From Polytrichum commune (lineage: Eukaryota > Streptophyta > Polytrichopsida > Polytrichales > Polytrichaceae), in NCBI GenBank assembly GCA_950295325.1, contig OX485807.1, positions 27,933,666 through 27,997,665 on the forward strand: a stretch of DNA of 64,000 bases. The letters run 5' to 3'. The notes below the pieces were generated by a model. It had not been told where the DNA came from, searched no databases, and saw nothing but the letters and a program-made list of their open reading frames with translations. This document shows, piece by piece, positions 16,295 to 64,000 of this stretch (its first letter is position 1; the number at the start of each line of letters is the position of its first letter). A program made the position numbers and the translations under genes.

Positions 16295-16398
16295 GGTAGA
16301 CACCTATACCTGCCGAGGGAGACATTTCTGGTGAGGGGGAGGGTTGACGGTTGAGGGTGAAGGTGAGGGTTTTGTGTCGTTCTTGGAGTTCTTGAAAT

Positions 16399-36768: not shown

Positions 36769-37302
36769 GAAGTTGGTAGAATTGTATTAGCATGATTATA
36801 GTGTAATATGTAATTCGACGAATATATATTACTCATATGTGTGCTCCTCAAACTTGGGGCAAAGTTTGGGTAGAACTTGCGAATGCTATATTGTTTGGGG
36901 TTGGATGAATATCCATTTACTATATTTCAATACAGTTGTGAAGTTCATTTTTTTATTAAGTTTGGGAATAAATTTTCCATTGAAGAAAAATGCATTTATT
37001 GCATGTACTTTGTATGTTGCAATGTCTATATTTTATTGACCATGCTAATAATAGAAATCATTTTATATGTTTTTTGGGTGAAACTAGTTTGGAGTGCTCT
37101 ACCCAAAGTGTTTTTGTTGATGAAGTTGGTGTTGAGTGCTCTACCATATGTGCTTATGTCCACACCCCATAGATTTGGGATATTAGAACATATAATATAT
37201 TTGAGATTGTTCGCAATATAGTTTCGGAACACGGAATGTTGTTTGATCCATATATTAATTTGAGACTAGAGAAAGTCTCAATTTCACGAATATAGTGTTT
37301 AT
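36769..37302. other. Non-coding flank with hairpin next to satellite monomer
   Basis: 3' flank of the DUF7869-like gene. Around 37261-37300 a GAGAC...GTCTC hairpin and a CACGAATATAGTGTT phrase occur, the inverted match of the sequence that borders the satellite at 18590. Confidence 0.45.
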
Positions 37303-38352: not shown

Positions 38353-38368
38353 TTGGGAGGGGGTAAAA
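38353..38368 (+). promoter_or_regulatory. Polypurine tract
   Basis: TGGGAGGGGGTAAAA lies immediately 5' of the LTR's TG, the standard position for the primer of plus-strand synthesis. It shows that the left LTR serves as the 3' LTR of sequence to its left. Confidence 0.7.
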
Positions 38369-40441
38369 TGTTAAGCAACAACATTACAAGAGAAAAAAAG
38401 AGGCAAGTTAGAGTATACAACAACATCAAACAACTCCGGAGAAGCAAGAGGAAGAATGCCGAAGAGAAAGGCCGAAGAGGAATGCCGAAGAGCTCTCGGC
38501 CACGGCATTAGGAGCACGAGAACGGCTATAGGGTCTCCAACCGCGGAAATGCAAGGAAGACGCGCGGTCTTGGGCGCCCTTACCCGCGGTAGTAGGGTAC
38601 CGGCGGTTTACAAAGGACTTTCTAGCATTTTATTAAAGGACTTTAAGGGGTTATATTAGGGGCATATTAAAGGATGTATTAGGGATACATTAGGGGCATA
38701 TTAAGGGGTGTATTAGAGGTATATTAGAATATAGGATTTTGAGGATAAATGACTATCCGAAGTACATGATTATGGAATTTTGAAGAAGCATGATTATAAA
38801 TTATGTAAGAATTTTAGATTCTTATACATTATGAAGATGCATTATGAGCATATAGGCCAAGGATAGATTCTACGAGTATGTTTAAATACAAATCATTGGA
38901 ATCAAGCAAAGGTGAAGACTTGATTACATTCTCAAAAAGAACTACAATATAGCCAAGACAAGGATATAGTAGAATTTTAGAAATATGAACATTCAAATGG
39001 TAAAACGGTTATAACCGTTTAGGATAGATGGCATCTACATATATCGAAGATAGCTAGTATCTATGGAAGTGGAAGTTATTAACCACTCTTAGTATAGATT
39101 TTGGATAGGGAGAAAAGACTATATAAGGGAAGCAAATTAGGATACTTATACCTCATTTTCTACACAACGAAGTTATCTTAAATTTGAGTGTCAAAAACAC
39201 TTGAGTTTCTTTGTACCTCTCCTCTCGGAGCACTTTTGCAATACAATATCTTTTCCCACAAATGTGTGTGTGACATTTCTATCTCTCTCTCAAATTGTCT
39301 TACAAGTTTGTCAAGCGGTACTTGGAACTTGAGTGAGTGAGCAACCGAGAGTAGAGTAGATTGAGTAGACTTTTTTGAGAAAGAACTCAAAAGATAGTGC
39401 GAGGGTGAAAACAAAGCGCTCAAGACAAATTGGAGAATCAATGGGACTTTGAGAGAGATTGAATTGAGAAAGCGATTGTTTAACTTGAGTGAAAGAAACA
39501 CGATTATCTCTCAAAGCGGAACTTATCATTGATCTCCTCAAAAGGGAATTATAATTATTCATGTGATTAATTGATTGAAGAAATATATGCATGTTATGAT
39601 TTGAGCAAAATTACTTAACTCCTTCAAAAGAGGAGGAGCTTATTATTATAAACTACATAATCGACTTATACATATTATATTACATATTGATTGATTGAAC
39701 TTATGATTGACAAGAATGATGAAGACATTAATTCACATCAAAGTTTGAATACATATGAATGAAGTAATATTGATATAAGATAATCTACTTACTACAATTG
39801 TTATTGAAGCTTCTTACTTTAAGATTCTTTGTGAGTTGTTGGATGTCATTACAAATTTGAAGGATTATCTATTCAAGAGAAGATCTCTCTCTCTCTTGAG
39901 CAAAATTCAAGAGAGATAGGTTTACTTCTCGTCATCAAGAAACACTTTGAAGTTAAACGTGACATTGCAAAACAATCAATGATGTGTTCATGAAATTATA
40001 ACTACTATATGTATACATGTCAAGTTACAATATTATAAGTAGTAACATTTGAGCTTAAAAAGGAAGACTCAAGAATATTAGATCTTCCTCATCGTTATAA
40101 GATTACTATCAATTGTGTAATTGATGTGTATAAACTACAAAACTTAATGATTCATAGAACTTATTGAAACTATATGTTATTGTTACACCTCTTGAAGCTT
40201 TCTTAAATCTAAAGGTTCTTATTGTCAATGATGCCTTACATTGAGAACAAGAACTAAGATAATGAGATTGTGTTCACTCCGATAATATATTCATATCATA
40301 AGGAGAAGAGAGGAGTTATTAAATTGAGGACCGAACATATTAATGAGGCACGGTAGTTCTCAAGCGAATATAAATTTACGTGATGAGCATCGTGAGTCTT
40401 CTTAGCTAATTTTGCAAAGGAACGACCCACGGCGTCCATCA
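38369..40441 (+). repeat. Left LTR (2073 bp), plus orientation
   Basis: Starts TGTTAAGCAACAAC and ends GGCGTCCATCA. It is the inverted counterpart of 45745-47817 with exactly the same length, and every frame compared between them is identical. A diverged solo copy lies at 55990-58056. Open frames inside it are not supported as genes. Confidence 0.9.
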
Positions 40442-40640
40442 TTTTGGCGACCATGCTGGGGATTCTTGCCATTAATGTGTCTCGGTGATTTAAGTGTGAA
40501 GGAGACGAAAGTGGAGGATCTTGGCGAATGCGTTAACTAAGCACGTGGAGAATCACGCCAAGAAGATCGGATAACCGCAACGTTAGATCTACGGAATGGA
40601 ACTTGACACGTTCGTGAGTGGTACGCCTTACTAGTGAGAA
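40442..40640 (+). promoter_or_regulatory. PBS and leader beside the left LTR
   Basis: TGGCGACCATGCTGGGGA at 40445-40462 resembles the tRNA-Arg-type primer site of Tat/Ogre elements, 3 bp after the LTR. A leader of about 180 bp matching (inverted, diverged) 45508-45720 follows. Homology ends near 40640, where minus-strand protease sequence takes over; 40537-40640 is thus also at the end of the protease frame. Confidence 0.65.
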
Positions 40641-45322: not shown

Positions 45323-45744
45323 TGGAACTTTCTCCCGTCGTGTGCCATAATTTGTAAGGTAAGGACTCCTCAATCTCCACTTGATAGAATTTCTCTTGAG
45401 TTTCGATCTCCTTGAGTATCGCCTCGCAAAAAAGTGATGAAGTTTAATTCATTCAACGTATCACGTATCTCCCGGTCGTCTTCCGTATGTCTCTTCTCAT
45501 TTGACATTCTTACTAGTAAGGCGCATTATCTCCGAATCGTGTTTAGTTCCATTTGGTAGATATGACGTTGCGGTTGTCCGCTCTTCTTGGCGTAATTCTC
45601 CACGTGCTTAGTTAACGTATTCGCCAAGAACCTCCGCTTTCGTCCCTTTCACACTTAAAATCACCGAGACACATTAAATCACCCTTTCACATTTAAATTA
45701 CCAAAACACATTAATGGCAAGAATCCCCAGCATGGTCGCCAAAA
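45323..45744 (-). promoter_or_regulatory. Leader and PBS of the minus-strand element
   Basis: Reading leftwards from the right LTR: PBS at 45741-45724 (same 18 bases as the left copy), then a leader. The 45508-45720 part is mirrored at 40463-40640 on the other arm with substitutions and an indel. Confidence 0.7.
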
Positions 45745-47817
45745 TGATGGACGCCGTGGGTCGTTCCTTTGCAAAATTAGCTAAGAAGACTCACGATGCT
45801 CATCACGTAAATTTATATTCGCTTGAGAACTACCGTGCCTCATTAATATGTTCGGTCCTCAATTTAATAACTCCTCTCTTCTCCTTATGATATGAATATA
45901 TTATCGGAGTGAACACAATCTCATTATCTTAGTTCTTGTTCTCAATGTAAGGCATCATTGACAATAAGAACCTTTAGATTTAAGAAAGCTTCAAGAGGTG
46001 TAACAATAACATATAGTTTCAATAAGTTCTATGAATCATTAAGTTTTGTAGTTTATACACATCAATTACACAATTGATAGTAATCTTATAACGATGAGGA
46101 AGATCTAATATTCTTGAGTCTTCCTTTTTAAGCTCAAATGTTACTACTTATAATATTGTAACTTGACATGTATACATATAGTAGTTATAATTTCATGAAC
46201 ACATCATTGATTGTTTTGCAATGTCACGTTTAACTTCAAAGTGTTTCTTGATGACGAGAAGTAAACCTATCTCTCTTGAATTTTGCTCAAGAGAGAGAGA
46301 GATCTTCTCTTGAATAGATAATCCTTCAAATTTGTAATGACATCCAACAACTCACAAAGAATCTTAAAGTAAGAAGCTTCAATAACAATTGTAGTAAGTA
46401 GATTATCTTATATCAATATTACTTCATTCATATGTATTCAAACTTTGATGTGAATTAATGTCTTCATCATTCTTGTCAATCATAAGTTCAATCAATCAAT
46501 ATGTAATATAATATGTATAAGTCGATTATGTAGTTTATAATAATAAGCTCCTCCTCTTTTGAAGGAGTTAAGTAATTTTGCTCAAATCATAACATGCATA
46601 TATTTCTTCAATCAATTAATCACATGAATAATTATAATTCCCTTTTGAGGAGATCAATGATAAGTTCCGCTTTGAGAGATAATCGTGTTTCTTTCACTCA
46701 AGTTAAACAATCGCTTTCTCAATTCAATCTCTCTCAAAGTCCCATTGATTCTCCAATTTGTCTTGAGCGCTTTGTTTTCACCCTCGCACTATCTTTTGAG
46801 TTCTTTCTCAAAAAAGTCTACTCAATCTACTCTACTCTCGGTTGCTCACTCACTCAAGTTCCAAGTACCGCTTGACAAACTTGTAAGACAATTTGAGAGA
46901 GAGATAGAAATGTCACACACACATTTGTGGGAAAAGATATTGTATTGCAAAAGTGCTCCGAGAGGAGAGGTACAAAGAAACTCAAGTGTTTTTGACACTC
47001 AAATTTAAGATAACTTCGTTGTGTAGAAAATGAGGTATAAGTATCCTAATTTGCTTCCCTTATATAGTCTTTTCTCCCTATCCAAAATCTATACTAAGAG
47101 TGGTTAATAACTTCCACTTCCATAGATACTAGCTATCTTCGATATATGTAGATGCCATCTATCCTAAACGGTTATAACCGTTTTACCATTTGAATGTTCA
47201 TATTTCTAAAATTCTACTATATCCTTGTCTTGGCTATATTGTAGTTCTTTTTGAGAATGTAATCAAGTCTTCACCTTTGCTTGATTCCAATGATTTGTAT
47301 TTAAACATACTCGTAGAATCTATCCTTGGCCTATATGCTCATAATGCATCTTCATAATGTATAAGAATCTAAAATTCTTACATAATTTATAATCATGCTT
47401 CTTCAAAATTCCATAATCATGTACTTCGGATAGTCATTTATCCTCAAAATCCTATATTCTAATATACCTCTAATACACCCCTTAATATGCCCCTAATGTA
47501 TCCCTAATACATCCTTTAATATGCCCCTAATATAACCCCTTAAAGTCCTTTAATAAAATGCTAGAAAGTCCTTTGTAAACCGCCGGTACCCTACTACCGC
47601 GGGTAAGGGCGCCCAAGACCGCGCGTCTTCCTTGCATTTCCGCGGTTGGAGACCCTATAGCCGTTCTCGTGCTCCTAATGCCGTGGCCGAGAGCTCTTCG
47701 GCATTCCTCTTCGGCCTTTCTCTTCGGCATTCTTCCTCTTGCTTCTCCGGAGTTGTTTGATGTTGTTGTATACTCTAACTTGCCTCTTTTTTTCTCTTGT
47801 AATGTTGTTGCTTAACA
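45745..47817 (-). repeat. Right LTR (2073 bp), minus orientation
   Basis: Inverted copy of 38369-40441 with the same length and TG/CA ends. The flanking 5 bp (TTCCA) do not match those left of the other LTR (TAAAA), so no target duplication joins the two ends. Confidence 0.9.
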
Positions 47818-49194
47818 TTCCACTATTCTTCTATTATTGTTTTCATATACTTTTTCAATGCTTGCTTACGATTTTAGGCGAATGTTGGGTTGAATAATTC
47901 ACCATCAACCTCACCATTAATGTCACCTCATGAAATTTGGCATTCAAGTGTCTTTACTAATATCTCGGCATTAGTATGTTCCACAATGATATGAAGTGCA
48001 CACCTATATTACACAATGGTCTACAAGTTGACTAAAGTGTACACCAACGACACTTGACATTGGTATGCTCAAGAATATCTTCCCCTTGCATACTTCAACG
48101 CGGTCTAACAAACTTTTAGTACATATAGATCCATCTCTAGTTAATTCTACTAGAATAATTCAAGGTCTTTGATCTTGATTAAGGTGTTAATTGGGTTTAG
48201 ACCAATCATTCACATGTTCTACATGATAATTAGTTTCTTTGCTCTCCCCTTTAGTAGGTGTCAGGAAACTTTAATCCCAATCAAGGATCAAACATTATGG
48301 CAATACTATGAGTTGAAGGTGACAAAAAGTTTATTGTTTAATATCGCTTAGGTTTTTAATTATTAAGACATAATTTACTTTAGACTCATGATCATAGATA
48401 TACTCCAAATGAGGTTAGAATATGCAATTTTAATGTCAAAAACTTCCAAGTTCACATAGAATTGTGGTCATTGGATTGGATCATAATTTTCCCATTTGGC
48501 TAGCGACTGAGAACCAAGAAATTTTTTATTTCATGTTTCAAAATTGAAGTTGAGATGCAAAGGTTATAATAAGTCAAAGTGAATAATTTTTTTTTTTAAA
48601 ATGATGACTCGAGACCTCCTAGTTGTGTTGAGTGTTAAACCAAGAAGGCTTGTGCTTAAAATATGGACATCATCCTAGGTTTTATGTTCAACACAATTGC
48701 TCTTCTTAAATAACCACCTATATTTGAGTGGTATATAGTAAGGTGTTGTTGTTAGAGGAACATGTTGTAAACACTTCCAACATTTTCAGTTTCTTTAATA
48801 TTTTCTTTAAGTTTCTTTCAACATTTTAAGTTTATGCTCATATATATATATATACACACATACAAACGGATGGGTCTTCATGGGCATTACGTGTGAGGCC
48901 TGCAGCATTGGGGTTTGGAGATTCCCTCACCACAATAGATGGAATCTTACTTGCTAAATTGCTAGAGGTTGTCATGAAATTGTCGTGGTCAGGTAATATC
49001 CTGAACCTCCAAGAAGGTGCAAGCAAATACTATATAGGTTCCTCCACCACGGTTACAGGTTCTTTTTGTCAATAAATTTGTCAATAAATATTTCAAAAGT
49101 TAGCTCTACACCACGGCCATAGGGCATGTTTCACCTGACAAAATTTCAATATTCTAGAAAACTTACCGCTCACCGCTCACCGCTCGCAAAATAG
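47818..49194. other. Gene-free AT-rich stretch
   Basis: A short TA/CA microsatellite occurs at about 48838-48862. No protein signature was found. Confidence 0.45.
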
Positions 49195-49483: not shown

Positions 49484-50989
49484 CAACCAGCTAGCTGCCA
49501 TTGCTCAATGATCAGCTCATACGACAGATGAAGCGATTAGTATCATTCAGTAGACAAACCTACGCGGGCTTTGGAATGGATCTAACCAGCATTGCACCTG
49601 CGAAGCGTGATGCATTTTGAAACTCAGTAGAAATAAGCAAGGTGACCTTGATAATGCCATGCCAAACCGCATCGTTTATTCGTTTCTTCATCATACATGT
49701 CGATTTGACAATGTTGAGTGGGGTTGCATGGTTTCTTTTCGGTGTACTTACCTCTGATGAATCCCCAACACCATACTAAATTGAAACACGAGACACCTGC
49801 ACACTTCCCCTTGTACACGAAAACGCAAAACTATCGTCTCAAATATCCCAATGCTCTTCGTCAAATGTCATAATGCAAATAAGTTTTCACGTTGAAAATG
49901 TTACTTATGTTCACGAACAATATCACATTCAATTTGGGAATTAACGCCGTGACACTTTGAAATTTCTGGGCGTATAGTTTAGGCCCTTGGCAAAATAGTG
50001 CACGTGATGTTAAATATCACAAACGGCGTAATTAAATTGGAGGTTATTGATTCTATTTCCGGAGTCAAATCGCCCAAAACACTTATTTTACAAGTTAATA
50101 CAAAATCCACTGCGTTTTCACCTTTGTAAAGGATGAATTTATGTGCCCACCACAAATTCCTCTTTTATCTTATGGTAGCCACGGACGTTGGGTGCAATGT
50201 TTTGCAGATGTGGTTTCCTTCCTCCTTTGGTCTCGCACATTTCTCCACATGTTAAAGATGGTAGCCCAATCCATTGCATTCATTTCAAGCTCACAATGGG
50301 CATGTATTCATGAATTCAATATCACTCAGTAAAAAATTCACCCCTAATTTCTTTTCAAATTTGACAAAATAATGCATGTTTTGGGAATTTGTACCACACG
50401 CACTACATGGGACGATCAGTGTAGTTGGGCATTCACCAAACAAAGTATCTACCACAGGTGTAGAGGGTAAAACTGGTGAGAATGGAATATCTCCCAATAT
50501 CTTAGATATTGGGCCAAATCAGGTGACAAACTTTAGGGCCTTGTGAACCCTAAACCTTAAAATTTAAAACGTTTTGCTGAGATGGCTATTTTCCCCAATA
50601 TTTAATCAAACAAAGCACTCTAGATCTCCTCTCATTTTTAAAACTTCAAATCAAGTGACCTAGCAATTGACCATACAAAAGTATTTATCACATATGTAGG
50701 TTGTGTTACTAGTGAGAGTGGATTATCTACCACTGGCCTAGAGTATATGATGAACTTCAAGGACTTGTGAACGTTGTTGGCATTCAAATCACAAACTCAA
50801 CAATAGTATTGCTTCCAATCAAGCTTCAATTTAGGCATTATGAATTGTACATTGTACATTAAACACAATTTAAAGGGGATCTCTACACTATGCAAAGTCT
50901 ACTTCAAATCATCCCAGTGTCAAGCTGAGGTACCTCAAAATTAACCCAATATTTAATTAGCCAAAATATCACTCTTTGATAATATACTG
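49484..50989. other. Gene-free stretch
   Basis: No coding or RNA signature was supported. Confidence 0.4.
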
Positions 50990-53286
50990 TCACGGTATGC
51001 GGCGTCGACGGCCGCACCTTATCCGTTGGGTTTCATCCATCTAGATTTGGATGGATGAATCTAGATGTGGAGAGGAAGGCTCCTAAGTGAGGAGCCTCCT
51101 CCTTGGCTTGGCATTCTTGCCAAGTCAAGTCTTGTGAGTTAGTGTGTGGAGAGAGCTTGTGTGAGGTGTAGATTGCATGATTTTGCAATAAATCTTGAGT
51201 TCTTCTCCCTCTACTTACACTCTTGGATTCTCCCTTGGTGGAGTGAGAGATAGCTTGACTAATTGTGTGCATTTGAAGAGAGATTTAGAGGTATTATGAG
51301 TGTTCTACTCTCTTCCTTCTCACTTGGCAAGAATGCTTCATTTTTTATGTTTTCTTCTTCATTCTTGAGATTTGACAAGAAGAGGGGCATGAAGACATGA
51401 AGTGACGAAGTTGTGAGGTTCCGGAGCGAGAACACCGTGGATTTGCGGCGCAACAAGATGAAGAATGCTTGTTTTTGAAGGTCACATCAAGGTGAATTGT
51501 GTTGGTGAAATATTGAATTTTCTATGGAATTCCTTGTCAATTTTCCACTTGCAAGCTTGAATACATATCCTTGAGCTTATGGAGAGCATTCTTCACTCCA
51601 ATTCAAGTTCAAATTCATTCGAAACAAAGTTTTTTTTTTTAAAATTTGACAAGAGAGAGGAGAAAGAGGAAGAACACCGAGAGCCGGAGCTCTCTGGACT
51701 CCGGGCGGCGGCGGTCGGCGGCACGCGGCATCACTTCGCGGCCGGCGGCAAGCCGGACCGGGCCGGGTCTTCCCCCCCTTCCTCCTTCTCCTCCCCCCCC
51801 CCCCCCCCCCCTTTTCCCCTCCTCCTTCTTCTCCCTTTCCTCCCCCCGGGTCTACCTACCCCCTCCCCCTTTCCCTCCCCCTTCCCCCCCCCCCCACACA
51901 GCTACCTACCTCCCCATATTTACCTTCCCCCCCCCCCAAGCCCAATTTCCTCCCCCCCTAAGACCACGCCCCCCCCAGCTGCAGCAGCAGCAGCCGACCA
52001 GCTGCTGCGGGGGCGGGAGGTTTTATTTTTTATTTTTTATTTTTTTAAATTAAAAAAAAGAAAAAAAAGAAAAAAGGAATGGATTTTATTGTAGTCTCAT
52101 ATTATATTGTTTATTTGTATTTTTGAATAAATAAACAAAAACAATGAGCTACAATACAAACTCCTTGGATCTAAGTAGATATTTTTGACGGAGGCATTCT
52201 CCATGGGTGTTGGAGTACCGTTAATTGATAACAATAGTTGGGGGCATTCAAAATTTCAAGAGCGTGCAATTCTTGGGTTTATGAATAACAAACTTTAAGG
52301 ATGGATTGAGAGCACCTTCTTGAGTTTCTTGGGGATTGTCGGAGGTTTGGTACGGAATCATTTTGTTGGGAAAGGTGGAGCATTGCGGGAGAGGTTCGCG
52401 GGGGCATCCGGCAACACGCGGAGGGCGTGGGATTGCGGCGAATTTGCGGCTAGCTTCATTTTCTCTTGCAACAACTTGATAGAGGTACTTGGCATAAGCG
52501 GGGGTTTGCCATTTTCTTTTGTTTAAAAGAAAATTAAGGGCATTGGTATTTATTTGGGGATAGGTGTAGGATTTATTGGGGATAGGTGATGAATTTATTT
52601 GGGGATAGGTTTATTGGATTGTAGGGGATAGGTGTAGAATTTATTTGGGGATCAATTTATTAGATTGTTGGGGATAGGTGTAGGATTTGTTGGGGATAGG
52701 TGTAGAATTATTTGGGGATAGGTTTATATATTGTTGAGAAATTGCTTAAGGGTAGAACAAATTGTGTTGAGAAACACAGATTCTAGGGACTTCAAAGAGG
52801 AGAGTATTTCATGTTGTAGTGCTAGATGAGAGATGTGCAATTTCTTTTCTTAAGCAACAGGGGCTCCACATTTTGACCACCAACCGCAGGCGGGTGCCGG
52901 TTGGTCGCGGTCGCTTTTAATTTTTGTTTTAAGTATTGTTTTGGGGAAGAGGATCCATTGTTGTTATTGCATTGTTCTTTGCATTTTGTTGTGGTACCTT
53001 CCCCCTGTGGTGGGCTTGTTGTGTTGGAGTTTTCCAACATTGCCCCAATTTGTTTGTCCTAGATTGTGATAGGGTATTGTGGGGGTGAGGTCGGATTAAT
53101 GACCGACGAGACCCTTGTGTGTGCACCAAGTGGGCGGTGCTTGTTTTCCTTATGGTGAGGCTGGGTTGATGACCAGCAGACCATAAGTTTGGTGGTGTTT
53201 GCAGGTGCAGGTTGCCTTTTACCCTTCACCTTTACACCACATTAGTTTAGATTGTTGGCTCCAGTGACCGAACCCATTGCGGGTTT
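50990..53286 (+). other. Probable 5' LTR/leader region of the methyltransferase-bearing gypsy element
   Basis: The region directly precedes the gag ATG and is gene-free. A TGTCACGG start near 50990 could be the LTR edge, but no second copy exists in the window to prove it. It includes a C-rich low-complexity tract at 51778-51990 and a tandem GGGGATAGGTGTAGAATTTATT-type repeat (about 52550-52725). The Pro-rich and basic open frames here are low-complexity artefacts. Confidence 0.4.
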
Positions 53287-54891
53287 ATGGTTACAACGCG
53301 GAGCCAACATTATCGTTCGCCGTCTCCAGCATCATCACAAGGTCGATCCTTAGACCTTTTGGACAGTGAACCAGTGGTAGCACCCGACGAGGCTTTTAAG
53401 CCTACTTCGGCGTGGGGGACTGCCACTCGGTCTTGCGTCCATTGGGTGGGATCCTTCGACGAGATGGAGGAGGAGTCAAGAGGCGGCATTCGAGACCGAT
53501 TTTCTGGTCGAGCAGGGACCATTTCCTTGCAAGATTGGAAAATCCGGTTTAGGACATGGATGAGGGAGAAACGTCAACGGAATACCAATTTCAACGATTG
53601 GTATGCGTTCGAGCTTCTTCCCCAGCATTTGGAGCATGAGGCTTTCCAGACTTATGAGCAGTGGACAGAGGCTCATTGGATGGAGTTGCGCCATGTTGAG
53701 CAATACTGGGAGACTCGGGTTGAGTTAGTATCCGCATTGAAGGAAGGCGCAGCTTCCAGTTTGATGGCCGTTCCGGAGGTTAAGACGGAGGTACATGAGG
53801 GAGTATACGAGGTGGATGTGGAGGGAGCTTTTCCTATCAATCCCACGGCTCAGGGCCAAGCTCCCGCAGCGGAGAGTACCTCGAGCCCCATTCTTCCATT
53901 GTCACGTTATGCCCAGGCTACCCAAGCGGCATTAGCTTCTTTAGGAGCTCCGCCGGGTTTTGATCCTCTACATGAATTCCAACTCCATTTGGAGGAAGAA
54001 TATGGAGGCTTCCGCCGCGATCAAATGCAGCGTATCCAAGACTTTCGACGGGAGAAAGATGACACACCTCGTACCATGTACACGAGGTTGGCAAGGTTTG
54101 CCAGGGAATCTGGAGGTGTTTTCGCCGAGAGCCAGTTGGTAAAGGTGTTTTTGTCAAAGATTGACAAACGCCTCATTGACTTAGCTTTACCCAGGATCAT
54201 CATGGATCATGGTGGCCGAGCGACACTTGCGGAAGCTTTTGCCATAGTTGAACAGTGTGATCGTGCCTTGTGTCAGCACGACGCCACTGACTTGGTGTCC
54301 ATGCTAGTGGATTCTAGCAAATCCCGGAAGGTTCCGGTTGCGGCTGCGGGATTGGCGGAGGCAGAGGTGGACAAGATCTTGCATTGTTGGTCTTGTGGAC
54401 AGGCGGGCCATGCTAAGAAGGATTGTCCTTCGAAGCATAGGCAAGCCCAGACCGTCACTACTCCGAAACGGAAACCATTTGTTCCCGCTAAGGGCTCGAC
54501 GAAGGGGACGGGTAATCAGTTATCCAAACAGTTGAAGTGTTCTCATTGTGGGCGGAAAAATCACGCGGTGGAGAACTGCTTCGCTTTCCATCCTGAAAAA
54601 CGTCCTTCTTCCGACCGGGAGAAGACGTTGGAGGCGAAGATTGGAGCCATGGAGGAGAGGTTCAAAAGTTTGGCGTCATCCGGCCAAATCTTGGCCTCAC
54701 CGTCTTCCTCCGCAGCTCAGGCTAGTTCTTCCACTCCGGATTACTATATGTTCGGAGCCTCGGGCGAGGTGGTGAGTTTTGCAGCTGTGACACGTGCTCA
54801 AACCGTGTCACGAGCCACGCCTTCGACCACAGGAGAGTCTGTGGACAGCTTACGAGCTCGACACAATGGTCCCGCGGATCAGATTGGTTAG
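53287..54891 (+). CDS. Gag of the methyltransferase-bearing element
   Basis: Starts at ATG 53287 (MVTTRSQHYRSPSPASSQGR). Residues of about 230-340 form the gag core (HEFQLHLEEEYGGFRRDQMQ, RTMYTRLARFARESGGVFAE, SQLVKVFLSKIDKRLIDLAL). Two CCHC knuckles at about residues 367-380 (CWSCGQAGHAKKDC) and 419-432 (CSHCGRKNHAVENC) bind nucleic acid. The frame stops at TAG 54889-54891, but the same frame continues open into the protease, so the stop is either a leaky gag/pol boundary or a lesion. The TAG is followed by ACA, which is not a known strong readthrough context. Confidence 0.88.
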   Translation: MVTTRSQHYRSPSPASSQGRSLDLLDSEPVVAPDEAFKPTSAWGTATRSCVHWVGSFDEMEEESRGGIRDRFSGRAGTISLQDWKIRFRTWMREKRQRNTNFNDWYAFELLPQHLEHEAFQTYEQWTEAHWMELRHVEQYWETRVELVSALKEGAASSLMAVPEVKTEVHEGVYEVDVEGAFPINPTAQGQAPAAESTSSPILPLSRYAQATQAALASLGAPPGFDPLHEFQLHLEEEYGGFRRDQMQRIQDFRREKDDTPRTMYTRLARFARESGGVFAESQLVKVFLSKIDKRLIDLALPRIIMDHGGRATLAEAFAIVEQCDRALCQHDATDLVSMLVDSSKSRKVPVAAAGLAEAEVDKILHCWSCGQAGHAKKDCPSKHRQAQTVTTPKRKPFVPAKGSTKGTGNQLSKQLKCSHCGRKNHAVENCFAFHPEKRPSSDREKTLEAKIGAMEERFKSLASSGQILASPSSSAAQASSSTPDYYMFGASGEVVSFAAVTRAQTVSRATPSTTGESVDSLRARHNGPADQIG

Positions 54892-55989
54892 ACACGCCTT
54901 CCATTGTCTTTTGGATTGGCTGATGCTGCCCAATCTGTCAGTGGTCGCAATTCGAGCTTGGAGGCTTCAAGTCCGTCGACCGATGTGGTGCACACTTTGG
55001 CATCCAAAGTATTGCACACGCCTTTGTTCACAGCGATGGATTGGTCGTCATCCGATATCCAACCAACTAAGGTTTTTTACCTAGCAGGTAGGATATTGGA
55101 GGGGAAAACAACCCCGTCTTCTCTTACTGTGGCTCAAGCAACCGCAGACCTTCCTACCACGGAGGATCCTGAGGAAGCCGCCAAACGGCGAGCGAGGCTT
55201 GCGGAGGAGGCCATTGCGTCTTTTGACGCACACACCTTGGATGGCCAGGAGCCAACCACATCTTATCATTCACCAGCCTCTACAGGTGCAGCTTATCTAT
55301 CCGATGTAGCTGCTCGACCTGCTCGCGAGCGTCGAGGCATTCGACCTGGTGTTGTACGGATGGTGAATGATACCGGCATTTTGGTGGTCAGTCGCATTGG
55401 GAGCAATGTTACTCAGGTTGCTCCCCGTTGTGTGATGATGGATTCAGGGGCACAGCCAGTTATGATCGGCAAAAGGCTTGCCCAAGAGTTGGGGTTGACG
55501 GCCGAGGATTTGGCTCCCTGCCCATTCACCATTGTCACATCCATTGGTCACATGGAACGGGCCATGGGTTATACTCGGGAGCCATTACAGCTTAGCTTCC
55601 GAGTGAAGCCTGGAGATTCACCTGCACCTCTTCTTCTTAGGTGTGCGGTGACGGATGCGACCAACTATGACATTTTAGTTGGTCAGCAAGCACTTTACCC
55701 TCTTGGTTTTGGTTTGGACAACTGGACTGAGGAGGCGTGGATCCGACCAGGTTGGTCGGCTGGGGATGGCTGCAGGGAACTTATTCCCGTGGCTTTCGCC
55801 GCGGCCGCGACCATAGCACCATTATCTATGGTTTTTGGATGTGGTGCTATGGTGGACACATTGCCTTATGGTCCCATATTGTTGGAGGAGTCATTGGCAT
55901 TCATGGGGAGTACAGACAATCAACGGGATATGACACCTAAGGGTGCATTGGTGCGCCATCCCAAGGATCCCCTTCCTCCTTGGCGTGAT
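54892..55989 (+). CDS. Aspartic protease region of the polyprotein
   Basis: Continues in the gag frame after the TAG. VAPRCVMMDSGAQPVMIGKR (around 55420-55480) holds the DSGA active site, followed by RLAQELGL and, about 90 residues later, NYDILVGQQALYPLGF, the usual retropepsin distal strand. The protease cleaves the polyprotein. The frame is cut at 55989, where a 2.07-kb solo LTR is inserted; the codon pair on each side joins exactly after the 5-bp target duplication is discounted. Confidence 0.85.
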
Positions 55990-58056
55990 TGATGCACCCC
56001 GTGGGTCGTTCCCTTGCAATAAGCTCAAGAAGACTCACGGTAAGACATTACGTAAATTTATATTCGCTTGAGAACTACCGTGCCTCATTAATATGCTCGG
56101 TTCCCGAATTAACAATCCCTCTCTTCTCCTTATGATATGAATATATTATCGGAGTGAACACAGTTTCATTATCTTAATTCTCACTATCAAAGTAAGGCAT
56201 CATCGATAATAAGAATCCTTAGATTTAGAAAAGGTTTCAAGAGGTGTACAATATGCTTGATAACAATATAGTTTTCAATAAATCATATGAGTCTTTAAGA
56301 CTCGTAATTCATAAGCATAAATCACATAAATGATAGTATCTTATAATGATGAAGAAGATATATTATTCTTGAGTCTTCCTTTTTAAGCTCAAGTGTTACT
56401 ACGTATAATATTGTAACTTGACAATTATGCATATAGTAGTTATAAGTTCATAAACACTTCATTAATTGTTTTGCAATGTCACGTTGAACTTCAAAGTGTT
56501 TTAATAACAAGAATAATTATACTCTCTTGAGTTTTACTCAAGAGAGAAGAACTCTTCTCCGATTGTTAATGACATCCAACAACTCACAAAGTATTGTGAA
56601 AGAAAGAGGTTGAATAACAATTGTAGTAAGTAGATTATCTTATATCAATATTACTTCGTTCATATGTATTCAAACTTTGATATGAATTAATGTCTTCATC
56701 ATTCTTGTCAATCATAAGTTTAACAATCAATATGTAGTATAATATGTATAATGCTTATAAGTTGATTATGTAGTTTATAATAATAAGCTCCTCCTCTTTT
56801 GAAGGAGTTTGTAATCGTTAAGTAGTTTTGCTCAAATCATAACATGCATTTAATTCTTCAATCATTCAATCACATATATTTATAATTCCTTTTTGAGGAG
56901 ATCAATGATAAGTTCCGCTTTGAGAGATAATCTTGTTTCCTTCACTCAAGTTTGACAATCGCTTTCTTAATTCAATCTCTCTCAAAGTCCCATTGATTCT
57001 CCAATTTGTCTTGAGTGCTTTGTTCTCACCCTCGTGCTATCTTTTAAGTTCTTTCTCAAAAGAGTCTACTCAATCTACTCTACTCTCGGTTGCTCAATCA
57101 CTCAAGTTCCAAGTACCGCTTGACAAACTTTGTAAGACAATTTGAGAGAGAGGTAGAAAGATCACACGCATTTGTAGAAATGATAAGTGTATTGCAAAAG
57201 TTCCTCGAGAGGAGAGTTACAAAAGCTTCAAGTGATTCTTGACACTCAAATTTAAGATAACTTCGTTGTGTAGAAAATGAGGTAATAGTCTCCTAAAATG
57301 CTTCCCTTATATAGTCTTTTCTATCTATCTTAAAATCTATACTAAGAGTGGTTGTTAACTTCCACTTTCCTAGATAGCTATCTTTCTTCAACATATGTAG
57401 ATGCTATCTATCCTAAACGGTTATAACCGTTTCACTACTCTAATGTTCTCAATACTAAGATTTCACCATATCCTCCTTGAGAGTTAATCAAATCCTTGTA
57501 CTTGATTGATTCTATTCCGGTGATTGATATTTAGAACATCCATTTAGAATGTACCCTAGTCCTATATTCTCCTTAGTGTCTTCATAATGTCTCTTGAACT
57601 TTATATCCAAAATTCCCATATATTCCATAATCGTGCTTCATCAAAATCCTACATTCTAATATATTCCCTATACCCCTTAATATACCCTTTAATATTCCTC
57701 TAATACCTCCCTTAATATGCACTTTAATATTCCTCTAATACCTCCCTTAATATGCACCTCTAATAACTAAGCTCTCTTTGTAAAGGAGCTGGGTTTCCTA
57801 TCTCCGTGGGTAGCGGACCCTATCTCCGCGCGTAAGTCGCGCAATGCCGTGGGAAAGGGGCCCTAAGGCCGTGGCCAACTCCATGGCCGAGCCCGAGCTC
57901 CATAGCTGAGGTTGAGAGCTTCCTCTCCCGATTTCGGTGCCGCTCCTTGAACTTCCTCTTGCTTGTTAGTTCCATTTGATGCTTGAATGTGCTTTGCTCC
58001 TTAGGTCTGTGTTGATCGATCGTACCATTTACACCTTGAATATGTTGTATTCAACA
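55990..58056 (-). repeat. Solo LTR (2067 bp) with GTGAT target duplication
   Basis: A diverged relative of the 2073-bp LTRs at 38369 and 45745, in minus orientation. It begins TGATGCACCCCGTGGGTCG and ends TATTCAACA. GTGAT occurs directly before (55985-55989) and after (58057-58061), a perfect 5-bp target-site duplication. It lies exactly between protease and methyltransferase codons. Confidence 0.93.
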
Positions 58057-58061
58057 GTGAT

Positions 58062-59148
58062 TCCGCCGAGCTATTTCGGAGGTGCGAGGATATTGTTCAC
58101 TCTCTCATTCCTAGGACACCGGTCATACCGGGTGTCCTCTCGGCATTGGCACATCCCATTTTATGGCAGCCGCCAGACGCGGGAATTATTTTGGTGGAAC
58201 TGTTTGGGGGCATCAGCACAGGCTTAGCGACCGTATTGGAGGCTGGCCTCACGGTTAGACGATATGTCTATGTGGACAACTCTCAAGTGTCCACCCGTGT
58301 GGCTCGTCACCATCTTCACCAATTGATGGTATTGTACCCCCAGCAGTTACCTCCAACTGCCATTCGTGGGTGTTTTTCACGTCTCCCTCGTGATGTCACA
58401 CTCATCAGTGAGGCCGATTTACGACACTTGGGTCCAGTGAATATGGTGATTGCGGGATGGCCATGCCAGAGCCATTCACGTGCTGGAGCAGGCGGAGGAC
58501 TAGAGGATCCCAGGTCTAGTCTATTTTAGGACCTCATTCGTCTCATGCAGTGGTGGTATTCCCACCAATCTTCCCCTCCAACGTATATTTTCGAGAATGT
58601 ACCTATGTTCGGAGACTCCCGGGCCAAGGTGTTGGAAGGCGATCATTATGTTCGTCAACACCTTGGAGATCCCATTCCTGTAGATGCTGCGAGCATTGGT
58701 TCTTATGCCCACCGGCCTCGGTGGATTTAGACCAACCTCACACCATCATCTACATTAGTTGCAACATTTTCTGCAGTGCCTCCACCTTTTGATCAAAAGG
58801 TGGACAACATCTTGGATCCAAACCGGACTTCTTTGTCGGTTGTCCGAGATGATTTACCCCCATTGGCATTGGTCAACAAAGTGGAGGCACCACGGCGGGT
58901 TTTTCCCACATTTATGACGTTTCCACAGTCATTTGCTTTCCGCGATCGGGGGCTAGGTATGGTGTGGGATGCTCACACCAAAACCCACACCGAACCATTG
59001 GCAGATGAACGGGAGCGTGCAATGGAATTTCGCATTGGCACCACCGCAGCTCCTGGCCTTTCTGAAGGCCAACGACGCTTCGTGTTGGGCCAAGCCATGG
59101 ATCTTCATACTATGGTGTGGACTGTTGGTTTATGTCTTTCATGGCAAG
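58062..59148 (+). pseudogene. DNMT3-like cytosine-5 DNA methyltransferase domain within the polyprotein
   Basis: About 360 codons in the polyprotein frame. C5-methyltransferase motifs in order: I (IILVELFGGISTGLA, about 58185), IV with the catalytic Cys (VIAGWPCQSHSRAG, about 58450), VI (YIFENVP, about 58586), VIII-like (AHRPRWI, about 58710), IX-like (ERERAMEF) and X-like (EGQRRFVLGQAMDLHTMVWT, about 59080). The GxxTGL motif I, the RY strand and the final LG-x-(S/A) helix are closest to DNMT3. Family role: AdoMet-dependent transfer to cytosine C5. TAGs at 58527-58529 and 58728-58730 interrupt it, the second where DNMT3-type enzymes have a conserved Trp, so this copy is inactive unless read through. 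It sits between protease and RT with no start of its own, implying release from the polyprotein. A solo LTR is inserted just after motif X. Confidence 0.87.
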
Positions 59149-60123
59149 TGTCGCAACCCTTGCTAAGCCCCCTTGACAATCTTGCCAATTTTCCTTTCTA
59201 GCAAAGGTTACGAGCGCTAACCCTTCGCATACCGCCATGCTAATGGTTAACTCTTCTTACCCCGGACCATATAATTCAAAGGAGGGGAACCAACCCTCCT
59301 ACTTTGCTTTCGGGACTCACCCCTTAATCGGTAACCCATTCCTAGATGTGGACTTCCATCCATGGAAGTCCAATCCCATGTTGATCATCGCGTTGCCGGA
59401 GCAACACTACAACAACCCGAACCATACTAGGCAACTATGGCCTCACATTGGGCCAATGCCCATGGAGGCCGTGCCGTTCGGCCTCGGGTGGGTGAGGCCA
59501 CACCACCTCACCCATATAAGCCTCTAGGACTCTACGCGGGGCCCCTACCCCACCGTCAACCAACCTCTTGTCTCTCTACCAAGAGTTGGGGCCAAGTGGA
59601 CATTTTCCTTTAGCTGCTGGGCCTAGAACCCCCCCAGCAGCTTCAGACCATCATAACTTCCTTGTATGATGTCTGATCATAACAACCAACCGCTCCATCT
59701 TCATCTACGCTTCACGTAGATGCCGATGGACTCCTCACTTGCCCCATTCAGGCAAGTCTTGAGGAAGTTATGCCTGTTTGAACCTTGGCAGTCCCGGGAA
59801 TCACTCCCAGGCACTGCTGTACCAGGGCGCTGTCCCGGGACAGCGCCCCACTCAAATGGCCATAACTCCTAGCTCCCACCTCCGCTTGAGGTGATCTTGT
59901 GCATTCTAGAATCACCACGCCATGAGCTACGCATAGCTCATGGCCTTACCCTCATGCCTCCTAGTCTCCGTGGGTGGGAGGCGTTCCCAACGCCCGGGGC
60001 CCTCACCCACACTAGGATCACTTGGGCCCTCTCACCAACGGCGCCACAAGTCCCGGGTGTCACTCCGGGGTCCCCCTTGTGCCCATGGTGTTTCGGGCAC
60101 TCCTCATGGAGAGGTGCGCGACA
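59149..60123 (+). repeat. Second solo LTR (975 bp) inserted after the methyltransferase
   Basis: Ends are TGTCGC and GCGACA. Flanks GCAAG (59144-59148) and GCAAA (60124-60128) form a 5-bp duplication with one mismatch. A CATATAAGCC TATA-like word lies near 59511. Its right end is repeated in inverted orientation from 63750. The polyprotein frame resumes correctly at 60124. Orientation is inferred from the TATA-like word only. Confidence 0.82.
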
Positions 60124-63100
60124 GCAAAGGCATTGTGGTGACCAGTGGTTGCCTCTGGGGGCAGAGAACTCTGGTCAGGGGGCACAGCGGTCCACATCCA
60201 TTGAGGAGGGAATTCATGCCATGGTTGGAGAAGCCGAACGAATTTCTCAATTCGAGCAGCACGTAATGAAGGAGCTTCGAGCTCAACATTTTTACACTGC
60301 TTCGGCTTCTTTGTCTCCGGTGGTGGCTTCATCATCACATATTGGTGGTGATGAAGAAATGCCAGACTCTAGTGCTAGCACTGAGACTGGGGGCATGGTT
60401 AATGCTCCCTCCTCTCATTAGCAATTAGAGTCTGTGCCAGCATCAGATAGTTCTCCTTTGGTGGAGAGGGAGACTACAGAGTTTGATGATTGGCCATTGG
60501 AATTAGGCCCTCATCTCACTGGTGCCGAGGCAAGGAAAGTACGAGCATTTATTCGCTCGTACCGTAGGTGTTTTGCTTTTAGCCTTCATGATCTTGAAGG
60601 TTATAAAGGAAAACCCATCCACATTCAGTTGGAGGACGACCATCCCATTTTTTGGAGACCTTACAGGCTCAGTGTTTCCGAACGGATTGGCGTTCAGGCT
60701 CGTTGCCAAGAGCTTTTGGCAGCAGGGCTAATCGAACTTTCCAACGGGGAGTATGTTTGTGCTACGGTTATGCCATCGAAGAAGGATATCTTTGGCAATT
60801 GGACGGAGAAGCGGATGTGTGGGGATTACCATCCAGTTAATCGGAAGACCAAGTCGGATCGGTATCCCATGCCAATCCTGGAGGAGTTGTTCGATGCCAT
60901 TGGATTTTCTCGGGTCTTTAGCACCTTGAACTTGAGGTCCGGATATCACCAACTCCCATTACTTACAAGAGATCGGGTGAAAACCGCATTTTGGGGAGTT
61001 GATCGTGATGGGAAGGATCAACTATACCATTGGAAGTTTCTTCCATTTGGCCTCAAGAATACGCCTGCTAAGTTTCAGAGAGTGATGGATCAGGTTCTCT
61101 CTGGCTTGCCCTTTGCTCGGTGTTACATAGACGATGTGATCATCTTTAGCACAACACCACAAGAGCATGTGAGGCATCTGCAAGCCGTTTTTGAACGGTT
61201 GCAGCGGTGGGAATTGCGCTTGCACCACGGCAAGTGCAAGTTTTTCCATGACCGGCTGGCATATCTAGGGCATATGATTGTTCCAGGAGGTCTTGGGGTA
61301 CAACAAGCTAAGGTGGACGCCTTGCAGAAGATTCCGGCACTGGTTGATGTGCCGAGACTTCGTGCTTTCTTGGGCTTGGCGAATTACTATCGGCGATTCG
61401 TCAAGAACTTTAGCTTGATCGCCAAGCCTCTCACCATTCTCACGAGCAAGGACCAACCGTGGACTTGGGGTCGTGAGCAACAACAAGCGTTTGAGACATT
61501 GAAGCAAAAACTGGGTACGGCTCTAGTGCTTCGACGTCCAGATGTCTCCAAATCTTTCCAGTTGCATACGGATTGGAGTTCATTGGGTTTGGGAGCAGTT
61601 CTCACTCAGAAGGATGATTTTGGCCGGGAGTATGTTGTTGCTTACGCTTCGCGAAGCAATAACACGGCGGAGGCTAATTATTCATCCTACGAGGGAGAAG
61701 CATTGGCGGCGGTATGGGCTATTGCCCATTTTCGGCCGTATCTTTATGGTCAACACTTTACTTTAGTGACTGACCATCAGCCGTTACGGTGGCTCATGGA
61801 GTCGGATAAGCTTACTGGCAAGCTTGCTAGGTGGGCTTTGTTGCTCCAAGAGTATGACTTTGAGGTGGTACACCGTGCTGGGATTACCAACATGGATCCA
61901 GATGGACTCTCACGCAATCCAAGTCCTTCAGATGAGGATTTGACTGGGGCCAGGTGGCATGGAGATTGTGATCGAGAGGTAGTTCCAGGTTGGCACGCGG
62001 CTGCCTACCTCACTTTATTTTCTAGTGCATCCGTTGAAATTCCAATACATGGCTCAGATGATGAGACTGATCGGCCTCAAGCTATTGTGGATATATGGGA
62101 GGATCTTCCCGTATTGTATAAGCTTCAACATGGTACATTTCTTTTGTCCATTTCGGCAATGGAAAGGGATAGGATTGGACATCGAATAACAAGGTTCCGT
62201 TGGGAGAACGGTTTGTTATTTCGATTGTGGCCGGATGGGACAAGGCGTATTGTTCCTAGGCCGGATCAGAGGGCCTCCTTGGTGCGACAAGTGCACGAGG
62301 AACTTGGCCATTTTGGCATACGCAGGACACATTCGATGTTGCGTGGCCAATATTGGTGGATTGGCATGTATCAGCAGGTGGCTGCCTATGTCGGGAGGTG
62401 TGAAGTTTGTGACCGGGTCAGGTCTAGCTTTAACACCTTATCACCTCAGTTACAGCCCTTACCTATCATGGGATTGGGCTACCGTCGGTTGCTGGACTTT
62501 GCAGGGCCGTTGGTGGTTACACCACGTGGAGCAAAGTACGTTTTGGTGATGGTGGAGCATTTTAGCAAGTGGATTGAGCTTGTTGCTCTACCCCAAAACT
62601 CTGCAGAGTTGGCCGCGGCCGCCTTTTTGGATCGTGTGTTAGCACGTTTTGGAGCACCAGCTAAGGTGTTAACGGACCAAGGGAGGGAGTTCCTTGGTGC
62701 TTTTGAGGAGTTGTGCACTAAGGCTCTCATAGATCACCGCACCACCTCTCGGGATCATCCGGAGGCAAATGGCTTGGCTGAACGGGTTGTTCAGACAACC
62801 AAGCGTGGCTTGAGGAAATATGGATTACTTCGGGGAAGCCACCGGGATTGGGACCTTATGTTGCCATGGATTGCTATGGGCTATCGATTTAGTAGGCATG
62901 CCTCTTTGGCATCCTACAACCCGTATCAATTATTGTATGGACGTAAGCTTATACTCCCGAGTTCTATTCGGGAAAAGCTAGCTCCTGTTGTGGACTTCGA
63001 TGACCCAAACATTTGGGCAGAGTGTTTGCAGGAGCGGGCTCAATTCTTCCAGAGAGCCATGCCTATGGCCATGGAGAATTTGTCCATTGCTCAGCACCGT

Positions 63101-63568
63101 GACACATTGCGTTATGCACGCATTCGTAGTGGTGCTTACCGACCTCAGTTGCGGAGATTTCGGCAAGGGAATTATGTTTATCTTCAACGTGAGGCGCCTA
63201 CGACATTGGATGTCAGGGCAGGGCGCACTATCCTTCGAGTAAAGGAGGTGTTGCCGAATGGTTTGTTGTTGTTGGAAGGCAATGATGGCAAGGAATGTCG
63301 CGAGCATTCCAAGAATTGTGCCCCATGTCATCTACCTATTGAGGGTACAATTCATCCTGAATTGGCCGTCGTGCCAGAGGGTCTTCCATGTTTTGTGTAT
63401 GGAGAGAAGAAAGGGGCGGCTACTATGCTCTTGTGTGATCAGTGTCAACGTGGTTGGCACATGGCATGCTTGAGGCCACCCTTGACTTCTATACCATCTG
63501 GACAGTGGAGTTGTCCTCGTTGTCGAGGATCTTCGGTACGCGGTGCTCCCACCAATCGTACTGAATGA
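60124..63568 (+). CDS. Linker, RT, RNase H, integrase and PHD finger of the polyprotein
   Basis: 60124-60418 is a linker rich in Ser/Glu, ended by TAG 60419-60421, followed at once by CAATTA and then the continuing frame. RT: the YIDD catalytic pair is at about 61124, but the first catalytic Asp is Asn (STLNLRSGYHQ, codon 60929-60931). RNase H: TDWSS, YEGEALAAVW, VTDHQPLRWL. Integrase: HHCC zinc site (HEELGHFG ... CEVCDRV) and the D,D-35-E core (LDFAGPL, VLTDQGREF, ANGLAERVV). The C terminus ends in a PHD finger (CDQCQRGWHMACLRPPLTSI then CPRC); its second ligand is Tyr at 63398-63400. PHD fingers read histone tails and may steer integration. TGA at 63566-63568 ends the frame. Confidence 0.9.
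60419..60427 (+). promoter_or_regulatory. TMV-type stop-readthrough context (TAG CAATTA)
   Basis: TAG followed directly by CAATTA matches the UAG-CARYYA readthrough consensus known from tobamoviruses. It lies in frame between the methyltransferase linker and RT. Function is not shown; the codon may instead be a CAG-to-TAG lesion. Confidence 0.45.
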
Positions 63569-63749: not shown

Positions 63750-64000
63750 TGTCGCGCACCTCTCCATGAGGAGTGCCCGAAACACCACGGGCACAAGGGG
63801 GACCCCGGAGTGACACCCGGGACTTGTGGCGCCGTTGGTGAGAGGGCCCAAGTGATCCTAGTGTGGGTGAGGGCCCCGGGCGTTGGGAACGCCTCCCACC
63901 CACGAAGACTAGGAGGCACAAGGGTAAGGCCATGAGTTATGCGTAGCTCATGGCGTGGTGATTCTAGAAAGCTCAAGAACACCTCAATCGGAGGTGTGAG
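63750..64000 (-). repeat. Truncated (by window) inverted copy of the 975-bp LTR family
   Basis: Starts TGTCGCGCACCTCTCCATGA and is the near-identical reverse complement of the right end of 59149-60123. It runs off the window edge. It may have inserted into the 3' end of the gypsy element. Confidence 0.85.

What the first reader, a model, noticed from the sequence alone, without database searches (positions are those of the whole stretch)
58062..59148. Cytosine-5 DNA methyltransferase built into a plant Ty3/gypsy polyprotein
Motifs I, IV (PCQ), VI (ENV), VIII-, IX- and X-like of a DNMT3-like enzyme sit in frame between the retropepsin and RT. Retrotransposon-borne methyltransferases have been reported (from memory) in the alga Klebsormidium and the dinoflagellate Symbiodinium. 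Here one lies between protease and RT in what looks like a land-plant element. A transposon that methylates DNA could silence itself, exclude rivals or mark integration sites.
Basis: partly seen in the sequence, partly recalled or inferred. Interest (0 to 1): 0.92.

Follow-up and report, generated by a model that had tools for sequence, protein, structure and literature searches.

The report
Jumping gene carrying a DNA methyltransferase
A common retrotransposon in a plant genome carries its own DNA-methylating enzyme, similar to the enzymes cells use to silence transposons; related elements occur in liverworts, peat moss and green algae, so a mobile element may mark its own DNA.

Summary
Window 58155-59148 encodes a DNMT3-type cytosine-5 methyltransferase (MT) inside a Ty3/gypsy element bounded by the 4-bp duplication ATAC (50984 to 64941, window scale). 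This copy is dead: two premature stops in MT, and nested repeats that put PR, MT and RT in three frames. The domain is a family trait: in 20 of 20 sampled genomic copies RT follows MT, in 19 PR precedes it, and MT-bearing relatives are annotated in Marchantia, Calypogeia, Sphagnum and Closterium. "Always between PR and RT" fails: 15 of 49 MT-bearing relatives carry it between RNase H and integrase. Not in the finding: (1) MT ends the Gag-PR frame, and an in-frame UAG with the tobamovirus leaky-stop context CARYYA separates it from RT-RNaseH-integrase-PHD in 21 of 21 loci. (2) The terminal repeats are split (A-coding-B-A-B), as reported for the alga's KnitGypsy-Dnmt3. (3) Reverse transcription is probably self-primed. 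Likely working (inferred): an enzyme made at Gag level methylates the element's own cDNA. Known kind, new variant; it contradicts a printed statement that such transposons are absent from land plants, and Marchantia makes it testable.

The parts
50984..50987 (+). left copy of the 4-bp target-site duplication ATAC (right copy beyond the window, window-scale 64938-64941)
   Evidence: perfect 4-bp duplications in 12 of 15 sampled copies with both ends found
50988..51320 (+). 5' terminal repeat A (starts TGTC)
   Evidence: 97.3% to repeat A of another copy
51322..51336 (+). self-priming site: 15 nt complementary to a stretch inside repeat A (51111-51125)
   Evidence: the pair differs between two subfamilies with pairing kept
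53287..54891 (+). Gag open frame with CCHC zinc knuckle
   Evidence: (zf-CCHC E 0.0013, just under the curated cut-off)
54904..55992 (+). retropepsin-like protease region
   Evidence: Asp_protease_2 E 0.0016, under the curated cut-off; to 55791
55990..57765 (+). nested AT-rich repeat that interrupts ORF1 between PR and MT; further copies at 38961-40441 (-) and 45745-47225 (+)
   Evidence: 85.5% identity over 55990-57474, weaker pieces to 57765
58155..59148 (+). DNMT3-like C5 methyltransferase domain with two premature stops (58527, 58728)
59149..60123 (+). nested repeat of about 977 bp inside the end of ORF1; an inverted copy lies at 63750-64723 (window scale)
   Evidence: 95.8% identity
60124..60418 (+). 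rest of ORF1, the linker after MT
   Evidence: like the linker of the same subfamily in other copies
60419..60427 (+). in-frame stop UAG with leaky-stop context CAATTA between ORF1 and ORF2
   Evidence: consensus in PMC3542737
60422..63568 (+). ORF2: RT 60524-61363, RNase H 61454-61873, integrase 62234-63133, PHD finger 63224-63535
63750..64000 (-). second nested 977-bp repeat, runs on beyond the window to 64723; after it comes repeat B at 64832-64937

Best explanation
The window holds one decayed copy of an abundant Ty3/gypsy retrotransposon family whose Gag-PR frame ends in a DNMT3-type cytosine methyltransferase. SHOWN by sequence: gag-PR-MT, then an in-frame UAG-CARYYA, then RT-RNaseH-integrase-PHD; split repeats A-coding-B-A-B in the fuller copies (this copy: A-coding-B), TGTC...GACA ends and 4-bp target duplications. 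INFERRED: ribosomes mostly stop at the UAG, so MT is made in Gag amounts and RT-integrase in a small fraction. The element's protease frees MT inside the particle. MT then methylates the newly made double-stranded cDNA, probably at CG, before or during integration, and the PHD finger of the integrase steers the complex to chromatin with a certain H3 tail state. A new copy would arrive already methylated, to be kept so by the host's maintenance enzyme. That would make it quiet and cheap for the host and hard to lose, while copies not yet methylated are the active ones. Confidence in the steps: anatomy 0.95, leaky stop 0.85, active methyltransferase in intact copies 0.7, own cDNA as the target 0.45.
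For: Domain identity. Family-wide place: in 20 of 20 sampled copies RT follows MT, in 19 of 20 PR precedes it. Leaky stop: of 2262 TAG triplets on the + strand of 21 loci (20 copies and the window's last 14 kb) exactly 21 are followed by CARYYA, one per locus, each at the ORF1/ORF2 junction; the hexamer varies (CAATCA, CAATTA, CAGTTA) only where the consensus allows it; consensus from PMC3542737. Selection: MT between subfamilies has median dN 0.28 over 63 pairs with dS near or past saturation; the median ratio, over the pairs where it could be computed, is about 0.12. Shared history of MT and element. Recent activity: the two A repeats of one copy are at least 99% identical in 6 of 11 pairs; both frames are open in 3 of 20 sampled copies. 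Retrotransposon DNMT3s of a dinoflagellate methylate CG de novo in yeast (PMC5890265).
Against: The Klebsormidium gypsy DNMT showed no activity in the yeast assay, which its authors call inconclusive. CpG observed/expected in the sampled copies is 0.60-0.79 against 0.71 in window 1-50000, so no extra CG loss speaks for self-methylation. MT changes about as fast as PR and three times faster than RT at the protein level (dN 0.28, 0.29, 0.09); 6 of the 16 copies with a full-length MT alignment, this one included, have a stop in it. Three of six diverse relatives have ECQ in place of PCQ at the catalytic site. No expression, particle or methylation data were available.
Confidence: 0.68

Rival explanations
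1. MT acts in trans on chromatin: after integration or during particle entry it methylates host DNA, rival elements or the integration site, rather than its own cDNA. A Gag-level enzyme would then be an exclusion or site-marking tool.
For: Gag-level expression fits an enzyme needed in quantity (signal); the integrase bears a PHD finger, which could bring MT to nucleosomes.
Against: No data on targets; the host's own methylation would mask it.
Confidence: 0.2
2. MT no longer acts as an enzyme but is kept as a nucleic-acid-binding or structural extension of Gag.
For: Three of six diverse relatives have ECQ instead of PCQ, and MT is less conserved than RT.
Against: The catalytic C, EN, the AHR.R..WTN stretch and other columns are invariant in six relatives chosen across the clade; dN/dS about 0.12 between subfamilies (rough); the modelled domain keeps the DNMT3 fold.
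Confidence: 0.12
3. The UAG is an ordinary stop, and ORF2 is expressed by splicing or a separate start.
For: Annotated Marchantia models seem to join ORF1 to ORF2 across a gap (for example P0087, P0125); the first listed start of ORF2 is GTG.
Against: Both frames are in phase wherever the linker is whole, and UAG with CARYYA is kept in 21 of 21 loci while its flanks differ.
Confidence: 0.12
4. Chance or one-off capture: a host gene or another element's MT fell into this copy only.
For: Nested repeats flank MT in the window.
Against: 20 of 20 sampled copies and relatives in other plants share it.
Confidence: 0.01

Closest known systems
KnitGypsy-Dnmt3 of Klebsormidium nitens (de Mendoza et al. 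2018, PMC5890265; parts 1-2 of the text, sections 9-10 and passages seen)
   Same: Gypsy domain set with an unrearranged Dnmt3-type domain in the element's coding region, purifying selection, and terminal repeats arranged 'as that of a DIRS retrotransposon'; here A-coding-B-A-B. K. nitens retrotransposon proteins fall in the clade next to the MT-bearing elements in my RT tree (support of the rest 93/80).
   Different: Different host group (a plant that looks like a bryophyte); MT on the Gag side of a UAG-CARYYA stop; a PHD finger on the integrase ('PHD' does not occur in the paper's main text); the family spans several streptophyte groups, while the paper describes an acquisition in the K. nitens lineage. 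The published KnitGypsy MT sequence was not in hand.
SymbioDIRS-Dnmt3 and SymbioLINE-Dnmt of Symbiodinium (PMC5890265)
   Same: Retrotransposons with a DNMT domain, the DIRS ones Dnmt3-type; CG methylation de novo shown in yeast for SymbioDIRS-Dnmt3.
   Different: DIRS elements with a tyrosine recombinase, and LINEs, not gypsy with a DDE integrase.
Tobamovirus-type (type I) stop-codon readthrough, UAG-CARYYA (PMC3542737, passage seen)
   Same: Same nine-base signal, in phase.
   Different: A retrotransposon, with a DNA methyltransferase in the upstream product. Passage of the stop was not measured.
PAT-like elements with split direct repeats (PMC4157794, passages seen)
   Same: A1-B1-A2-B2 repeats.
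   Different: Here a DDE integrase (rve) and 4-bp target duplications; no tyrosine recombinase domain was reported by Pfam in the window's ORFs tested.
Mammalian DNMT3A/DNMT3B catalytic domain
   Different: About 25% identity in the structural alignment; other N-terminal partners.

Membership tests
KnitGypsy-Dnmt3-like elements | Gypsy-type Pol: RT, RNase H, DDE integrase, in that order | tested here: met
KnitGypsy-Dnmt3-like elements | Dnmt3-type, unrearranged methyltransferase in the element's coding region | tested here: met
KnitGypsy-Dnmt3-like elements | DIRS-like repeat arrangement (A-coding-B-A-B) | tested here: met
   10 of the 17 copies with fetched flanks show A at the 5' end and B-A-B at the 3' end (L027 with a partial 5' A); the other 7, and the window copy, lack one or more repeats
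KnitGypsy-Dnmt3-like elements | methyltransferase inside the Pol frame | tested here: not met
   MT shares the frame with Gag-PR, before the UAG; so I call it a variant, not a member
KnitGypsy-Dnmt3-like elements | MT and RT group with the published K. nitens copies | tested here: inconclusive
   K. nitens RT rows lie next to the MT-bearing rows, but in none of the four K. nitens proteins listed was MT found, and one search lists no other
Ty3/gypsy LTR retrotransposons | PR before RT-RNaseH-integrase, TG..CA ends, short target duplication | tested here: met
Ty3/gypsy LTR retrotransposons | one plain LTR at each end | tested here: not met
   split repeats
DNMT3 family | linear motif order I to X and DNMT3-type fold | tested here: met
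DNMT3 family | groups with plant and animal DNMT3 in a tree | tested here: inconclusive
   only a DNMT3A fragment (49% of columns, long branch) and two phage enzymes served as outside rows; no plant DNMT3 in hand
DNMT3 family | DNA cytosine methylation activity | not testable with these tools
   needs an assay
DIRS/PAT elements | tyrosine recombinase instead of a DDE integrase | tested here: not met
   rve integrase, 4-bp duplications in 12 of 15 copies
Type I leaky stop | UAG followed by CARYYA, downstream frame in phase | tested here: met
Type I leaky stop | measured readthrough | not testable with these tools
   needs a reporter or protein data

The most novel reading that the evidence does not exclude
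An old streptophyte retroelement lineage with split repeats, self-primed reverse transcription and a DDE integrase has carried a DNMT3 since before land plants. In bryophytes it makes that enzyme at Gag level, packs it into its particles and delivers each new copy already methylated: a transposon that installs its own epigenetic state. In one sub-lineage the enzyme was moved within the polyprotein to sit beside the integrase.
Probability: 0.4. Interest if true: 0.88.

Novelty: new variant of a known kind. Interest (0 to 1): 0.72.

Why it matters
DNA methylation is a main way plants silence transposons. An abundant, partly young element family that carries a de novo type enzyme raises the open question of why a parasite would methylate DNA, and puts it into plants that can be worked with: 16 of the 27 proteins are from the model liverwort Marchantia polymorpha (they come from more than one annotation, so the loci may be fewer), while a Marchantia methylome paper lists only five DNA methyltransferases, of the MET, CMT and DRM classes (PMC5784723, passages). 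[quoted passage not shown] vascular plants were not tested. A methyltransferase ahead of a leaky stop would fix its dose at the level of Gag, which is a concrete, testable clue to what it is for.

Tried and rejected
Rejected: chance similarity; host gene inserted once; plain LTRs. A tRNA primer was not looked for after a self-priming site was found. Tried without result: tRNA and Rfam scans of the window (none); a viral-contig scan with the MT alignment gave one distant hit, L049, with MT similarity but no RT or integrase match in the fetched 12 kb; a protein search with the K. nitens Pol listed no MT-bearing K. nitens protein; CpG depletion as a sign of self-methylation (none); a first structure model from 12 rows was poor (mean pLDDT 47), the second with 27 rows was good over MT. 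My first iterated profile drifted into integrase and was discarded for one with fixed domain limits. In the RT tree I labelled P0048 and four ORF2-only proteins (P0001-P0004) as group I without seeing MT in them; P0048 fell outside that group. In the MT tree the PR-MT/RT two-frame rows are two well-supported clades that are not joined with support. Host DNMT3 genes and copies lacking MT could not be counted, because whole-genome search answered only once.

Papers searched, listings seen, without a report of this family in land plants: (one search shows 20 of 1,395 and 20 of 83 papers); for leaky stops in such elements; for a PHD finger on gypsy integrases; for split repeats in gypsy elements; for the guessed host group: (no paper).

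Full report
WHAT IS THERE. The window (C5:27933666-27997665 of a 407.8-Mb genome in 64 contigs) contains one copy of a Ty3/gypsy element. Gag lies at 53287-54891, a protease region at 54904-55992, and RT, RNase H, integrase and PHD finger at 60422-63568. Between them, at 58155-59148, is a cytosine-5 methyltransferase (MT) domain. The element's ends were found with repeats from other copies: repeat A at 50988-51320, repeat B beyond the window at 64832-64937 (window scale), and the same four bases, ATAC, outside both ends. So MT lies inside one insertion.

THE COPY IS BROKEN. MT has two premature stops (58527, 58728). An AT-rich repeat sits between PR and MT (55990-57474 and weaker to 57765; other copies in the window at 38961-40441 and 45745-47225). 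A 977-bp repeat sits in the end of ORF1 (59149-60123), and an inverted copy lies after ORF2 (63750-64723; 95.8%). PR, MT and RT are in three frames here, against the finding.

THE FAMILY. In the window's genome PF00145 gives 123 scored matches from 352 candidates, a lower bound; 9 of the 123 rows show the same 1386-codon open frame. The window's own copy is not among the 123, and not every match was checked to be an element. I took 20 of them at about even steps down that list. In 20 of 20 RT follows MT; in 19 of 20 PR precedes it; in 17 of 20 gag was found too. These copies were chosen by their MT, so they cannot show how many copies lack it. They form two subfamilies by the linker after MT. 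Both frames are open in 3 of the 20. In 11 copies the two A repeats could be compared: 6 are at least 99% identical, the rest 90.6-98.2%, so some insertions are young.

MT IS ON THE GAG SIDE OF A LEAKY-TYPE STOP. In copies whose linker is whole, gag-PR-MT and RT-RNaseH-integrase-PHD are in one phase, separated by TAG. The six bases after it are CAATCA, CAATTA or CAGTTA. All fit CARYYA, the context that makes UAG leaky in tobamoviruses (PMC3542737, passage). In a frame-based test 27 of 29 loci matched (L008 aligned only from further in and L020 in another frame; L001 and L007 are the same insertions as L009 and L010). As a control, of 2262 TAG triplets on the + strand of 21 loci (20 copies and the window's last 14 kb), 21 are followed by CARYYA: exactly one per locus, each at this junction; in the whole window, both strands, it is 2 of 1703. 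The bases around the signal differ between the subfamilies while the signal stays.

REPEATS AND PRIMING. The ends are not plain LTRs. Ten of the 17 copies with fetched flanks have A at the 5' end and B-A-B at the 3' end (A mostly 333-444 bp, B 105-108 bp; one with a partial 5' A). Four copies (L009, L011, L018, L025) and the window copy have A-coding-B only; loss by recombination between the two B repeats is a simple explanation (inference). Element ends read TGTC...GACA, with perfect 4-bp duplications in 12 of 15 copies that had both ends, as expected of a DDE integrase. The first 13-15 bases after the 5' A are complementary to a stretch inside A in 12 of 18 loci (17 copies and the window), and this pair differs between the subfamilies with pairing kept (ACTTGACAACAAT with ATTGTTGTCAAGT, ACTTGGCAAGAATG with CATTCTTGCCAAGT). 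That suggests self-primed reverse transcription; my seed-based look found no such pair in the other 6.

RELATIVES AND HISTORY. A search with ORF2 (1278 hits, 120 listed) and one with a Marchantia MT (27 hits) gave 145 different proteins, of which 49 carry MT. In 34 MT lies after PR or before RT; in 15 it lies after RNase H or before integrase. Named hosts: Marchantia polymorpha (16 of the 27), Calypogeia fissa, Sphagnum fallax, and Closterium; the 15 have no named host. In the RT tree the 15-type is one clade (11 rows used, 100/99), with a PR-MT-RT element (P0038) and P0030 as its sister (99/96). MT-bearing rows, ORF2-only rows and, as the first branch off them, a clade with the K. nitens rows (100/96; the rest 93/80) stand apart from ten far elements in whose proteins no MT was found (100/100). 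In the MT tree all 39 element domains stand together (97/100) against a DNMT3A fragment and two phage enzymes, and the 15-type is again one clade (99/95; 13 rows). The simplest reading is one old capture between PR and RT and one later move next to the integrase. Without plant DNMT3 rows a second capture from a near source cannot be excluded.

HOW IT PROBABLY WORKS. See best explanation. Shown: anatomy, abundance, conservation, signal, repeats. Inferred: readthrough, release by the protease, packaging, methylation of cDNA, the part played by PHD. Against self-marking: no CG depletion (0.60-0.79 against 0.71 in window 1-50000) and an inconclusive yeast test of the Klebsormidium enzyme.

COMPARISON. 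The closest known element is KnitGypsy-Dnmt3 (PMC5890265). The paper reports Gypsy domains with DIRS-like repeats, as here, and a DNMT in the Pol frame, whereas here it closes the Gag-PR frame. It presents that as an acquisition in the K. nitens lineage; my trees suggest a wider and older lineage. A 2025 survey mentions DNMT3s in retrotransposons of streptophytes and dinoflagellates in a passage that cites that work (PMC12344493, passages). A survey of plant LTR elements has no mention of methyltransferase or PHD in its main text (PMC6317226, passages). Another paper says that such transposons are absent from land plants (PMC6338049, passage). In the listings of my searches I saw no report from bryophytes; subscription papers are mostly not held.

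HOST. Seven contigs of 42-78 Mb make up about 406 of 407.8 Mb (sizes). With the nearest named relatives in liverworts and Sphagnum, a moss with seven chromosomes is my guess (inference, not tested).

Noticed in passing
window 51111-51125 and 51322-51336; same places in other copies: Self-priming pair: the bases after repeat A are complementary to a stretch inside A, and differ between the two subfamilies with pairing kept (12 of 18 loci).
   Followed up: partly
L009, L011, L018, L025 and the window copy: Insertions of the form A-coding-B without the A-B tail, three of the four copies and the window copy with perfect target duplications; recombination between B repeats or another replication product.
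   Followed up: partly
P0040, P0042, P0043, P0049, P0054, P0058, P0059, P0063, P0085, P0096, P0105, P0141-P0144: MT between RNase H and integrase (in P0143 and P0144 only one neighbour is seen); hosts unnamed; P0085 alone stands for 224 member sequences.
   Followed up: partly
window 63224-63535: PHD finger at the C-terminal end of ORF2 where chromoviruses have a chromodomain (the comparison is recalled); Pfam lists it for many of the 120 relatives.
   Followed up: no
window 38367-40500 and 45686-47819: Two inverted copies of one stretch 99.8% identical over 2134 bp, of which a diverged copy interrupts the element at 55990.
   Followed up: no
window 16393-18588 and 30573-31500: Arrays of direct repeats with a period of roughly 295 bp (also near 37300) and roughly 120-130 bp.
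   Followed up: no
window 52554-52739: Short array of 22-24-bp units with GGGGATAGGTG between repeat A and Gag of the element.
   Followed up: no
L049 5800-6342 (IMGVR_UViG_3300010367_000276): Viral contig with a stretch similar to MT (30% identity) and no RT or integrase match in the fetched 12 kb.
   Followed up: partly
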